Made by a program: the position numbers and the translations under genes
Part shown: positions 33,769-43,467 of the stretch, one piece after another
Position numbering within the stretch: the first letter of the stretch is position 1
Layout of the letters: each line of letters opens with the position of its first letter
From: Burkholderiales bacterium
GTDB lineage: Bacteria; Pseudomonadota; Gammaproteobacteria; Burkholderiales; Casimicrobiaceae
Assembly: GCA_025981645.1 (NCBI GenBank)
Contig: JAICXH010000007.1
Location: forward strand, 1-49,042
Direction of reading: 5' to 3'
Length of the DNA stretch: 49,042 nucleotides
The notes under the pieces: generated by a model
The model's input: only the letters and a program-made list of their open reading frames with translations
Told to the model about the DNA's origin: nothing
The model's database searches: none

Positions 33769-34824
33769 ATGAACGCTCCAGACCACTCTGCGATCCGTCT
33801 CACCCAGTTCGCGCACGGCGGCGGGTGCGGATGCAAGATCGCTCCGGCTGTGCTGCAGGATTTCCTTTCCGGCGTGCCGGCCTCGCTCGTGCCTCCCGAC
33901 CTCCTCGTCGGGACCGAGACATCCGACGATGCGGCCGTCTACCGGCTGAATGATCACCAGGCGATCGTCGCGACGACCGACTTCTTCACGCCGATCGTCG
34001 ACGATCCCCACGACTTCGGTGCGATCGCCGCGACCAACGCACTGTCGGACATCTACGCGATGGGCGCGACGCCGCTTTTCGCCCTCGCGCTCGTCGGCAT
34101 GCCGGTCGACAAGCTTCCCGGTGGCGCCATCCGCGCGATCCTTGCCGGGGGCAGCGAGGTTTGCCGCCGCGCGGGAATCCCGATCGCCGGCGGGCACACG
34201 ATCGATTCGGCCGAGCCGATCTACGGCCTCGCCGCGATCGGTGTCGTCGACCCGGCGCGGCTGAAGCGCAACGGCGGCGCGCGACCCGGAGACCTGCTCG
34301 TACTTGGCAAGCCGCTGGGCATCGGCCTCTACAGCGCGGCAATCAAGCGCGACCGGCTTGCCGAAGACGGCTATCGCGACATGATCGCCTGCACGACGCA
34401 GCTCAACACACCGGGAGTTGCGCTCGGTGGCCTGCCCGGCGTCCACGCGCTGACCGACGTCACGGGGTTTGGGCTGCTCGGTCACCTGCTCGAAATGTGC
34501 CAAGCGTCGGAGCTCGCCGCGCGCATCGACTTCGGCGCGGTGCCGAAGCTGCCGCTCGCAGCCGCGTTCGCGCGCGACGGCTCCGTCACCGGCGCGTCGG
34601 GACGCAATTGGGCAAGCTACGGCCACAGCGTGACCCTCGCACCCGCGATCGCGCGCTCCGAGCGCGACCTCCTCACTGATCCACAGACGTCGGGGGGGCT
34701 CCTCGTCGCCTGCGCTGCCGACGAGCGAAGCGAGGTGCTCGAAATCTTCGCGCGGGAAGGCTTCGCGGAAGCCCGGGTGATCGGTCGCTTCGATCGGGGC
34801 GTGCCCGGCATCCACGTGAGTTGA
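33769..34824 (+). CDS. selD: Selenide, water dikinase (selenophosphate synthetase)
   Basis: LTQFAHGGGCGCKIAPAVLQDFL (catalytic Cys encoded by TGC, not Sec), DDAAVYRLN, TDFFTPIVDDPHDFGAIAATNALSDIYAMGATPLFALALVG, LLTDPQTSGGLLVA. Confidence 0.97.
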   Translation: MNAPDHSAIRLTQFAHGGGCGCKIAPAVLQDFLSGVPASLVPPDLLVGTETSDDAAVYRLNDHQAIVATTDFFTPIVDDPHDFGAIAATNALSDIYAMGATPLFALALVGMPVDKLPGGAIRAILAGGSEVCRRAGIPIAGGHTIDSAEPIYGLAAIGVVDPARLKRNGGARPGDLLVLGKPLGIGLYSAAIKRDRLAEDGYRDMIACTTQLNTPGVALGGLPGVHALTDVTGFGLLGHLLEMCQASELAARIDFGAVPKLPLAAAFARDGSVTGASGRNWASYGHSVTLAPAIARSERDLLTDPQTSGGLLVACAADERSEVLEIFAREGFAEARVIGRFDRGVPGIHVS

Positions 34825-36071
34825 AGGTCCGGGTGCGCGTTTCTTCCGCCCCCGAGGGGCCGGTGGTCGACCCTGGCGAGGCGCTCGCGGCACGGTATCG
34901 ACGGGTTCGCGCCCGCACGGAGGCGCTGATCGCACCATTGTCGGCCGAGGACTGCGCGCTCCAGTCGATGCCCGACGCGAGCCCTGCAAAGTGGCACCTC
35001 GCGCATACGACGTGGTTCTTCGAAACCTTCGTCGTGACGCCGGTCGACGGGCTGTATCGCTCCCCCGACCGCGTGTATCGGTCGCTGTTCAACTCCTATT
35101 ACCACGCGGTCGGCGCGCGGCACCCTCGCCCCGAGCGCGGGCTCCTGTCGCGACCTTCGCTCGCCGAAGTGCTCGACTACCGCATGCACGTCGACACCGC
35201 CATGCTGCGCCTGCTGCCGGACGCGCCCGGAGACGATCGACTGCGCGACCTGATCGAGCTCGGACTGCATCACGAGCAGCAGCATCAGGAACTCATCCTG
35301 ACCGACATCCTCCATCTGCTGTCGCGCAATCCGCTTCGTCCCGCCTACGCGCGTTCGAAGGTCGGTGCGACGCGTGCTGGCGCCTCCGGCGGCGCGCAGG
35401 CCTCGGCCCACGTCGCGGCACACGCCCCGACGGTCTGGATCGAATGTTCACCGGGCATCGCAATGATCGGGCACGACGGTGACGGCTTTGCGTTCGACAA
35501 TGAATGCCCACGCCACCGCGTGTGGCTCGATGCCTTCGCGATGGCGTCGCGCCCTGTGACCAATGCCGAGTTGGCGGCATTCATCGACGACGACGGTTAT
35601 CGGCGACCCGAGCTGTGGATGTCGTCCGGGTACGACGCGGTGACGGCGAACGCCTGGCACGCGCCTCTCTACTGGGAGCGCATGCAGGACGCGTTCGCCG
35701 AGTTCACGCTGCGCGGACTCGAAGCGCTCGATCCCGCGCGACCGGTGGCGCACGTGAGCTGGTTCGAGGCCGATGCCTATGCGCGGTGGGCAGGCGCGCG
35801 GCTCCCCACCGAATTCGAGTGGGAGGCGGTCGCACGCGGGCGAGGCGCGTCCGGCGGCGTGCCGATGGCCGGCGTCGGAGAAGTCTGGGAGTGGGCGTCG
35901 TCGTCCTACGCCCCCTATCCCGGCTTCCGGCCCGCCGGCGGCGCCATCGGCGAATACAACGGCAAGTTCATGTGCAACCAGTACGTGCTGCGCGGCGCCT
36001 CCGCCGCGACGCCGACGGGCCATTCGCGCATGACGTATCGCAACTTCTTTCCCCCCGAGACCCGCTGGTAG
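34821..36071 (+). CDS. egtB: EgtB-like (selfoneine/ergothioneine-type) iron-dependent sulfoxide/selenoxide synthase; C-terminus ends early at TAG
   Basis: DinB_2 part AKWHLAHTTWFFETF, LGLHHEQQHQELILTDILH; FGE-sulfatase part VSWFEADAYARWAGARLPTEFEWEAVARG, GEVWEWASSSYAPYPGFRPAGGAIGEYNGKFMCNQYVLRGASAATPTGHSRMTYRNFFPPETRW; TTG start overlaps selD TGA, true start uncertain. Confidence 0.9.
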   Translation: MKVRVRVSSAPEGPVVDPGEALAARYRRVRARTEALIAPLSAEDCALQSMPDASPAKWHLAHTTWFFETFVVTPVDGLYRSPDRVYRSLFNSYYHAVGARHPRPERGLLSRPSLAEVLDYRMHVDTAMLRLLPDAPGDDRLRDLIELGLHHEQQHQELILTDILHLLSRNPLRPAYARSKVGATRAGASGGAQASAHVAAHAPTVWIECSPGIAMIGHDGDGFAFDNECPRHRVWLDAFAMASRPVTNAELAAFIDDDGYRRPELWMSSGYDAVTANAWHAPLYWERMQDAFAEFTLRGLEALDPARPVAHVSWFEADAYARWAGARLPTEFEWEAVARGRGASGGVPMAGVGEVWEWASSSYAPYPGFRPAGGAIGEYNGKFMCNQYVLRGASAATPTGHSRMTYRNFFPPETRW

Positions 36072-36149
36072 TTCAGCGGCATTCGCCTGGCGCGCGATCG
36101 CAGTCAGGTCAGTCCGGAATCCCGCTTCCACAATTTTGAGGCACTCGGC

Positions 36150-36344
36150 ATGCCGGACACGTACGCAGGCATGATCAGTGCTACTGTGGGTGGCCCGATT
36201 GCCGGCATGATCTCCGGGCCCATGGACGAGCAATCGCTTCGCTCGGTTGCAATTGGCGGACTCAATAGACTATCGGGCGCCGCTCCGACTGTTGCGATCG
36301 CGGAGGGATTGAGGGGACGCTATCAATGCGGGTGTTCGCAATGA
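36150..36344 (+). CDS. Small hypothetical ORF with GxxxG-rich segment, in frame with run-on from egtB
   Basis: 64 aa MPDTYAGMISATVGGPIAGMISGPMDEQSL...; stop overlaps next ATG (ATGA); no recognised family. Confidence 0.35.
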   Translation: MPDTYAGMISATVGGPIAGMISGPMDEQSLRSVAIGGLNRLSGAAPTVAIAEGLRGRYQCGCSQ

Positions 36345-36583
36345 CTGATAACGACCCAAGTCCTGGTGTGTTGCGAGTGATTGCTCATACTCCATTCATA
36401 TCAACTCCGGCCATAGCTCTTGCGGCATACGGGGTCTATGGAACTCGAGGTTGGCCGGCCACTGAGTTCGATTTCAAGGTTCCAGATCGAATTTATGTGC
36501 TGGTTGTCGTCCTCGCAGTGTGGGGGGCACTCTGGGCAACAACGGGACGACTGATTTCGAAACTTCGGAAACGAAAGGGATAG
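36341..36583 (+). CDS. Small hypothetical membrane protein (two predicted TM segments)
   Basis: 80 aa MTDNDPSPGVLRVIAHTPFISTPAIALAAYGVYG...IYVLVVVLAVWGALWATTGRLISKLRKRKG; start overlaps upstream stop. Confidence 0.45.
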   Translation: MTDNDPSPGVLRVIAHTPFISTPAIALAAYGVYGTRGWPATEFDFKVPDRIYVLVVVLAVWGALWATTGRLISKLRKRKG

Positions 36584-36619
36584 ACTGACCGAAGGGAACT
36601 TGATCCAGCGCTCGACGCC

Positions 36620-37648
36620 CTACCCAGCGCCAGCGAAGTACACCGCGAAATCGCCGCGCTCGTCCTGCCAGCAGCGGACCGTCGCGAAACCGGCGCGGGT
36701 CAGCATCGCGATAAACGTCGCCGGGCGATATTTGTACGAGTACTCGGTGAGGATCCGTTCGCCGAATTCGAATCGCCGCTCGACCCCTTCGATCGAAACT
36801 GTCTGCACTTCACATGCCTCGAGATGCATCTCGATGCGATCGTGCGCGGTATCGTAACGGGCGACGTGATCGAACGCCGCGGGATCGAAGTGCGTTGCCA
36901 GCACGCGGTTGACGTGATTGAGGATGTTGCGGTTGAAGGCGGCAGTGACGCCCGCCGCATCGTCGTACGCGTCGCGAAGCCGGCCGGCGTCCTTGACCGT
37001 ATCGACCCCGATCAGGAGTCCGCTGCCCGGAACGTCGCAGTGCCCGCGAATTGCGCGCAGGAAGCCGACTGCGTCGTCCGGCAGGAAGTTGCCGATCGAC
37101 GATCCGGGATAGAAGAAGGTCGTCGGGCCGTCGTCGACGCCGAGACCGAGGTCGAGGCCGCGCTCGGCATCGAGCGAGCGCACGAAATCGGTGACGATGC
37201 CGGCGACGGCGGTCGCCGGGTGCGCCGAGGCGACGCGCTCGAGCGCGCGCTCCAGCTCGGTCGCGGCGACGTCGACCGCGACGTAGCGCCGCGGGGCGAG
37301 CGCGGCCATCCACGCTTCGGCCTTGCGACAGTCGCCGGCGCCGAGATCGACGAGTTGCCTGCCGGTGCCGATCGCCGCCACAATCTCGCGCCGGTGACGC
37401 TCGAAGATCGCCGCTTCGGTCCGCGTTGGATAATACTCTGGCAATTCGCAGATCGCGGCGAACAATGCGCAACCCACTGCATCGTAGAAGTATCGCGGCG
37501 CAATCGACGCCCGCTCCGCGACGAGCCCATCGGCGAGCAGCCTGCGCTCGGTTGCCGAGTCCGGGAGATCGCGCGTGTCGACGGTGAACTCGATCGCGCC
37601 GGCGTCTCCGGCACCCATCGCACGCGACGCCGATTGGCGGATCAGCAT
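36620..37648 (-). CDS. egtD: L-histidine N-alpha-methyltransferase (EgtD)
   Basis: RYFYDAVGCALFAAICELPEYYPTRTEAAIFERH, LVDLGAGDCRKAEAWMAAL, TTFFYPGSSIGNF, LIGVDTVKDAGRLRDAYDDAAGVTAAFNRNIL. Confidence 0.95.
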   Translation of the reverse strand: MLIRQSASRAMGAGDAGAIEFTVDTRDLPDSATERRLLADGLVAERASIAPRYFYDAVGCALFAAICELPEYYPTRTEAAIFERHRREIVAAIGTGRQLVDLGAGDCRKAEAWMAALAPRRYVAVDVAATELERALERVASAHPATAVAGIVTDFVRSLDAERGLDLGLGVDDGPTTFFYPGSSIGNFLPDDAVGFLRAIRGHCDVPGSGLLIGVDTVKDAGRLRDAYDDAAGVTAAFNRNILNHVNRVLATHFDPAAFDHVARYDTAHDRIEMHLEACEVQTVSIEGVERRFEFGERILTEYSYKYRPATFIAMLTRAGFATVRCWQDERGDFAVYFAGAG

Positions 37649-42814: not shown

Positions 42815-43072
42815 ATGAGTAAGCGGCTCCAGGTGCTGCTTTCGGACAGGGAGCTCACCGACATCCAGCAGTTCGCCCGTCGCCGGCAGATGACGGTGGC
42901 CGAGTGGGTACGCCAGGCACTGCGTGCGGCGCGCCGGGTCGAGCCCCGCGTTTCGTCACGCAAAAAGCTCGAAGCGGTGCGCGCAGCTGCCGGCAACGCC
43001 TTTCCCGCCCCCGACATCGAAAAGATGCTCGACGAGATCGAGCAGGGTTACCGCTCGGAGATCAAGGCGTGA
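42815..43072 (+). CDS. Ribbon-helix-helix (CopG-like) antitoxin, VapB-type
   Basis: [41 protein letters not shown]. Confidence 0.88.
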
Positions 43073-43467
43073 TCTTCGTCGACTCGAACGTCCCGATGTA
43101 TCTGGTCGGAGCCGCGCATCCGCACAAGGCGGACGCGATCCAGCTCCTCGAGTCCGCTATCGCTGCGGCGGAGCCGCTGGTCACGAGCGCCGAGGTACTG
43201 CAGGAGATCCTGCACCGTTACGTCGCGATTCGCCGCCGCGACGCGATTCAGGCGGCATTCGACGCGCTGCGAAACGTCGTCGACGGCATTCTCCCCATCG
43301 AGGCATCCGACGTCGAGCACGCCCGCGCGCTCGTTGCGGGCCTTGCGGATCTGTCGGCGCGCGATGCGCTGCACGCCGCGGTGATGGACCGTCACGGGAT
43401 CGAACGCATCATGACGTTCGATCGCGGCTTCGATTCCGTCCCGGGCATCCGGCGGTATCTCGCCTGA
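43069..43467 (+). CDS. PIN-domain toxin, VapC-type
   Basis: [74 protein letters not shown] start overlaps antitoxin TGA. Confidence 0.93.

What the first reader, a model, noticed from the sequence alone, without database searches (positions are those of the whole stretch)
36100..36583. AT-richer two-ORF cassette between egtB and egtD
Seen: hand count of 36301-36540 gives about 54% GC (130/240), against about 73% (44/60) for 35881-35940. It carries a GxxxG-rich small ORF (GMISATVGGPIAGMISG) ending in an ATGA overlap with an 80-aa ORF that has two hydrophobic segments and a basic tail (LRKRKG). Neither is a family I recognise. Inference: a horizontally acquired pair, for example a small toxic/bacteriocin-like peptide with a membrane immunity partner, or the tail of a decayed larger gene. 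The junction lies just after the EgtB LARD motif, as if insertion replaced the native egtB end.
Basis: partly seen in the sequence, partly recalled or inferred. Interest (0 to 1): 0.6.

Follow-up and report, generated by a model that had tools for sequence, protein, structure and literature searches.

The report
Stray toxin-tail and immunity gene pair
A roughly 500-base piece of foreign DNA sits between two antioxidant-synthesis genes in one bacterium; it carries the broken-off end of what is probably a larger bacterial weapon protein plus an intact small membrane gene that probably protects against it, a known sort of leftover found here in an unusual place and as an undescribed family.

Summary
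A ~0.5 kb stretch (about 36,099-36,619) holds the lowest-GC windows of the 49 kb contig. It fills a junction that is only 35-117 bp in nine relatives with the same egtB/egtD layout, so it is an insertion seen only in this genome. ORF2 (80 aa from the ATGA start; two predicted membrane helices) has full-length homologues (32-34% identity) in two genomes of another class. Beside each lies the same partner: a C-terminal tail with two cysteines whose stop overlaps ORF2's start as ATGA. ORF1 aligns with the G604 tail (z = 14.5 against shuffles), and its ATG falls at an internal Met of that longer glycine-rich frame. ORF1 is therefore a 5'-truncated gene end, not a free-standing peptide. Best reading: a horizontally acquired orphan toxin-tail/immunity module (Rhs/CDI-like, probably membrane-acting) with the immunity gene intact. 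Toxin and immunity functions are inferred, not shown. Known kind, new family.

The parts
36099..36619 (.). Inserted foreign segment (approximate ends), 56% GC against 68% for the window
   Evidence: Junction is 35-117 bp in nine relatives, 563 bp here; GC; absent from 21 other genomes of the genus and a 399-genome sample of the order
36147..36344 (+). ORF1 homology region: 5'-truncated C-terminal tail of a larger glycine-rich protein (ATG at 36150 aligns with an internal Met of the homologue)
   Evidence: Aligns with G604 tail, z 14.5
36341..36583 (+). ORF2: intact small two-helix membrane protein, probable immunity protein; alternative upstream start at 36326
   Evidence: Homologues in G604 and G645; AF2 helices 8-35 and 49-79, mean pLDDT 65
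36341..36344 (+). ATGA overlap coupling ORF1 stop and ORF2 start
   Evidence: Same overlap in G604 and G645
36069..36071 (+). Premature TAG of egtB; CAA or CAG (Gln) in all nine relatives; the frame beyond it encodes FSGIRLARD and is open into ORF1
36107..36114 (+). Left arm GGTCAGTC of an 8-bp inverted repeat near the insert ends (part of GTCAGGTCAGTC, 36103-36114)
   Evidence: (shuffle P 0.016, chosen after the fact)
36583..36590 (+). Right arm GACTGACC of the same inverted repeat
34821..36071 (+). egtB (ergothioneine biosynthesis protein EgtB), host gene upstream of the insert, ending early
   Evidence: TIGR03440 522.6 bits against cut-off 360, matched to position 405 of 413
36620..37642 (-). 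egtD (histidine-specific methyltransferase), convergent host gene downstream
   Evidence: PF10017, E 1.8e-96

Best explanation
The stretch is a horizontally acquired orphan C-terminal toxin/immunity module. ORF1 is the detached last ~65 residues of a larger glycine-rich effector (a polymorphic-toxin C-terminus) without its own start or delivery parts. ORF2 is the intact cognate immunity gene, a two-helix inner-membrane protein coupled to the toxin tail by ATGA. In the intact source system the glycine-rich tail would insert into a neighbour's inner membrane and depolarise it, and ORF2 would bind and block it there. In this genome the toxin part is a remnant; ORF2, if transcribed by read-through from selD-egtB, could still give immunity. 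SHOWN: insertion, foreign composition, homology of both parts, conserved order and ATGA overlap, 5' truncation. INFERRED: toxin and immunity function, membrane target, expression, source system.
For: Insertion: nine relatives have 35-117 bp here, the window 563 bp. Homologous pair in another class: ORF2 E 2.4e-13 and 8.7e-13, full-length alignment with 21 invariant columns, z about 25; ORF1 against G604 tail z 14.5; ATGA overlap in all three. Truncation: the G604 frame runs at least 51 residues further upstream. ORF2 has two hydrophobic segments and two predicted helices. The G604 tail has more glycine zippers than its shuffles, P 0.003. Start-less toxin tails followed by intact immunity genes are the documented form of orphan CDI/Rhs modules (PMC3150448); membrane-depolarising toxins are mostly paired with membrane immunity proteins (PMC12744356; PMC11630599).
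Against: No toxin or immunity family model matches either ORF. No full-length parent protein was found: the G604 contig ends inside the frame, and no Rhs core was found in G604 or G000. No VENN-type or Rhs-core motif survives in the window. The window tail alone does not exceed shuffles in glycine zippers, P 0.21. Only three members are known, all in draft genomes. No promoter-like site.
Confidence: 0.6

Rival explanations
1. A free-standing small bacteriocin or microcin-like glycine-zipper peptide (ORF1, with its own start) plus a membrane immunity protein (ORF2), in the manner of Cdz or class II microcins.
For: Small Gly/Ala-rich peptide with two C-terminal cysteines next to a small membrane protein; a GAGG motif lies upstream of the ATG at 36150; Cdz toxins are 84-86 aa glycine-zipper proteins with a transmembrane immunity protein (PMC5380434).
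Against: The ATG aligns with an internal Met of a frame at least 51 residues longer in G604; no leader or secretion signal was recognised in either frame; no Pfam bacteriocin or colicin-immunity model matches; no secretion genes are adjacent.
Confidence: 0.17
2. The tail and its partner are not a toxin system but the end of some other large Gly-rich membrane or surface protein and an accessory membrane subunit, carried in as neutral horizontally transferred DNA.
For: No toxin evidence beyond architecture; no family hits; the G604 neighbours examined are housekeeping genes.
Against: Tail-plus-coupled-small-gene fragments detached from their parent in all three genomes are typical of polymorphic toxins (PMC3150448); next to the G645 copy is a DUF1493 gene and a Y1 transposase; G645 also has an Rhs fragment with a Gly-rich end overlapped by a small hydrophobic gene.
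Confidence: 0.18
3. Chance ORFs in decayed DNA, or an assembly chimera.
For: ORF length alone is unremarkable for this composition; the genome is a fragmented draft of 154 contigs.
Against: Both ORFs have homologues in the same order elsewhere; both flanks are the native egtB/egtD junction on one contig.
Confidence: 0.05

Closest known systems
Orphan cdiA-CT/cdiI and Rhs-CT/rhsI modules (Poole et al. 2011, PMC3150448)
   Same: Toxin-gene tail without its own start, followed by an intact small gene; modular; may leave expressed immunity
   Different: No VENN motif or Rhs core remains; stands alone between metabolic genes, not in an array behind a full-length toxin gene; sequence family unrelated to any model searched
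CDI ionophore toxins such as CT-EC93 with CdiI-EC93 (Halvorsen et al. 2024, PMC11630599)
   Same: Helical, glycine-zipper-bearing membrane-active C-terminus with a small very hydrophobic immunity protein (functional likeness only)
   Different: No detectable sequence relation; the five-helix ionophore domain is not shown here; only the last ~65 residues remain
Tse5-type Rhs pore-forming effector (as described in PMC11630599)
   Same: Pore-forming C-terminus on an Rhs protein is a plausible parent architecture
   Different: No Rhs core attached in the window or in G604
CdzC/CdzD-CdzI of Caulobacter (PMC5380434)
   Same: Gly-rich zipper toxin with a small transmembrane immunity protein
   Different: Cdz has two complete small toxins with secretion signals and a type I secretion system; CdzI has three predicted TM segments; ORF1 is a truncated tail

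Membership tests
Orphan polymorphic-toxin CT/immunity module | Toxin fragment lacks its own 5' end and start | tested here: met
   Homologous frame in G604 extends at least 51 aa upstream; the window ATG is an internal Met of it
Orphan polymorphic-toxin CT/immunity module | Intact small gene directly downstream, conserved as a pair | tested here: met
   ORF2 conserved full-length with the same ATGA overlap in three genomes
Orphan polymorphic-toxin CT/immunity module | Homologous tail attached to a full-length Rhs, CdiA or other effector somewhere | tested here: inconclusive
   No full-length parent found; the G604 contig ends inside the frame; Rhs core only elsewhere in G645
Orphan polymorphic-toxin CT/immunity module | Demarcating motif (VENN or Rhs core) at the fragment's 5' end | tested here: not met
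   Not present in window 36072-36344 by reading; no Pfam or NCBIfam hit. PMC3150448 notes that some orphans also lack VENN
Orphan polymorphic-toxin CT/immunity module | Toxicity neutralised by the partner | not testable with these tools
   Needs a bench test
Glycine-zipper membrane toxin | (G/A/S)xxxGxxxG or GxxxGxxx(G/S/T) repeats beyond composition | tested here: inconclusive
   G604 tail: 11 overlapping motifs, shuffle P 0.003; window tail: 2, P 0.21
Cdz / class II microcin-type bacteriocin | Complete small precursor with leader or secretion signal | tested here: not met
   Frame is truncated; no leader recognised by reading; no Pfam bacteriocin match

The most novel reading that the evidence does not exclude
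Toxin-tail/immunity modules of this kind move between genomes as short cassettes bracketed by REP-like inverted repeats and mobilised by REP-associated (RAYT, Y1-type) transposases. The G604 module is bracketed by 10-bp inverted repeats GTCCCCCGAA/TTCGGGGGAC (three copies in the contig, 0.005 expected). The G645 ORF1/ORF2 module lies about 0.4 kb downstream of a Y1 transposase gene. An unrelated Rhs-CT/small-hydrophobic-protein module in G645 is bracketed by GGGGTCAGGTCTTGTTTCGCG repeats. The window insert carries GTCAGGTCAGTC...GACTGACC near its ends, and its 11-mer GTCAGGTCAGT recurs just downstream of the G604 module.
Probability: 0.15. Interest if true: 0.65.

Novelty: new member of a known kind. 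Interest (0 to 1): 0.36.

Why it matters
It adds an undescribed two-gene family (Gly-rich tail plus two-helix partner) found in two classes, and gives a clean empty-site/filled-site comparison for an orphan immunity module that landed far from any toxin locus. If the repeats at its ends matter, it would suggest how such modules travel, which is poorly known. For this genome it also flags that egtB ends early, so ergothioneine synthesis by this enzyme should not be assumed.

Tried and rejected
Homologues in IMG/VR (six scans), GTDB contig scans with single sequences, phages and plasmids: none. Weak hits to Pfam YhhN (E 0.09), PADLOC PDC-M45A (E 0.026) and DUF4271 (E 0.019): below any cut-off, ignored. 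G771 (L063) ORF2 match lies in an 807-aa open frame and the G849 match has internal stops: judged chance. Genus-level ORF1 hits at E 0.02-0.09: judged chance. Rfam: nothing credible. RNA fold of the insert: z -0.8, not structured. Homology of the G645 Rhs-CT pair (L078) to ORF1/ORF2: z at most 2.3, so only the layout is shared. TAG as a sense codon: egtD and ORF2 also end in TAG, so it acts as an ordinary stop. Relaxed selection on egtB: pN/pS and loss of invariant sites like those of relatives. SenA rather than EgtB: below the SenA cut-off, above the EgtB cut-off. DUF1493 as a published immunity family: no paper found in the library. Fold search with the AF2 model was not run (pLDDT 65, two helices: uninformative).

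Full report
WHAT WAS CLAIMED. The counts are exact: 130/240 GC for 36301-36540 and 44/60 for 35881-35940. The lowest-GC 240-bp windows in the whole 49 kb lie here. ORF1 36150-36344 and ORF2 36341-36583 (or from 36326) are present with the ATGA overlap. ORF length alone proves nothing at this composition: 53% of shuffles have an ORF of 85 aa or more, 1.7% a comparable tandem pair.

IT IS AN INSERTION. The window is contig C66 of a draft genome (2.76 Mb, 154 contigs, 87% complete). egtB and egtD are found convergent in nine relatives (eight of the same genus, one of the same family), in most with selD and further neighbours also in place. The distance from the egtB RW codon to egtD residue 337 is 35-117 bp in all nine and 563 bp here. 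No other genome of the genus has a convincing match to either ORF, and neither ORF was found in the rest of a 399-genome sample of the order.

EGTB ENDS EARLY. In all nine relatives RW is followed by Gln (CAA or CAG) and then F(S/T)G.RLA.D. In the window that codon is TAG (36069-36071), with FSGIRLARD still encoded after it. The EgtB model TIGR03440 is matched to position 405 of 413. Upstream of the stop the gene looks normal: pN/pS and the count of substitutions at otherwise invariant sites are like those of the relatives. So the change is recent, tolerated, or a sequence error; reads are needed. The open frame after TAG runs into ORF1, so without the TAG EgtB would be fused in frame to the toxin-like tail. 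Whether the TAG was selected for that reason cannot be tested here.

BOTH ORFS HAVE HOMOLOGUES. A phylum-wide sample gave two clear ORF2 homologues, G604 (E 2.4e-13) and G645 (E 8.7e-13), in one family of another class. They align full-length with 21 invariant columns (z 24-26 against shuffles). Directly upstream in G604 is a glycine-rich tail that aligns with ORF1 from Gly-Met-Pro-Asp to the stop (score 122 against a shuffled mean of 33, z 14.5). The G645 remnant upstream of its ORF2 aligns with the G604 tail end (z 7.4) but is too short and diverged to align with the window (z -0.3). In all three the tail ends with two cysteines and Gln-stop overlapping ATGA. The ATG called for ORF1 corresponds to an internal Met in G604, whose frame continues at least 51 residues to the contig edge. 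ORF1 is therefore a 5'-truncated gene end. A search of 78 genomes of the G604 order found no more members, and neither did a class-level sample.

WHAT IT PROBABLY DOES. ORF2 has two hydrophobic segments (AF2 helices 8-35 and 49-79 at low confidence) and a basic C-terminus. The longer G604 tail has more glycine zippers than its shuffles (P 0.003), while the window tail alone does not (P 0.21). A start-less C-terminal fragment followed by an intact small gene is the documented form of orphan CDI/Rhs toxin/immunity modules, whose immunity genes can be expressed although the toxin fragment is not (PMC3150448). Membrane-depolarising toxins are mostly paired with membrane immunity proteins (PMC12744356; PMC11630599). 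G645 also contains a truncated Rhs-core protein (sub-threshold TIGR03696 match, 22.7 bits against a cut-off of 32.5) with a Gly-rich C-terminus overlapped by a 96-aa hydrophobic gene (L078); its similarity to ORF1/ORF2 is not significant, so it supports the layout only. My reading is an orphan membrane-acting toxin tail with an intact immunity gene. Homology and truncation are shown; toxicity, immunity, target and expression are inferred. There is no promoter-like site in the region, so expression would probably need read-through from selD-egtB.

HOW IT MAY HAVE ARRIVED. Near the insert ends lies an 8-bp inverted repeat (GGTCAGTC 36107-36114 / GACTGACC 36583-36590; shuffle P 0.016, chosen after the fact). 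The 11-mer GTCAGGTCAGT at 36103 also lies just downstream of the G604 module. The G604 module is bracketed by GTCCCCCGAA/TTCGGGGGAC (three copies in the contig, 0.005 expected). The G645 module lies about 0.4 kb after a Y1-type transposase gene (PF01797), and the unrelated G645 Rhs-CT pair is bracketed by GGGGTCAGGTCTTGTTTCGCG repeats. This hints at REP/RAYT involvement but is weak for the window itself: I recognised no target-site duplication, and the extended left motif has no exact second copy in the genome.

NOVELTY. Orphan CT/immunity modules are a known kind. This pair matches no family model above cut-off in Pfam, NCBIfam, PHROGs or PADLOC and stands outside any recognised toxin locus. 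It is filed as a new member of a known kind on the strength of architecture; the link to a delivery protein is not shown, and one common mark (VENN or Rhs core at the fragment's start) is absent.

Noticed in passing
36069-36071: egtB carries TAG where all nine relatives have Gln, cutting the last ~10 residues; the frame beyond is open into the inserted toxin-like tail.
   Followed up: partly
33769-36071: A selD gene (true SelD, not SenC-like by model name) overlaps the start of egtB, and this selD-egtB pair with convergent egtD is conserved in the genus; a selenium link to EgtB is possible but untested.
   Followed up: partly
L068:3470-4173: GTCCCCCGAA repeats bracket the homologous module in G604 as inverted copies, and the contig ends exactly at one copy.
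   Followed up: partly
L078:1387-2340: In G645 an Rhs-core fragment with a Gly-rich end and an overlapping 96-aa hydrophobic gene is bracketed by GGGGTCAGGTCTTGTTTCGCG repeats, with what reads like the start of a REP-associated transposase gene just after it.
   Followed up: partly
L069:903-1232: A DUF1493 gene directly upstream of the G645 tail remnant, possibly another immunity-type gene.
   Followed up: no
42904-43467: A PIN-domain (VapC-like) protein; no antitoxin partner was looked for.
   Followed up: no
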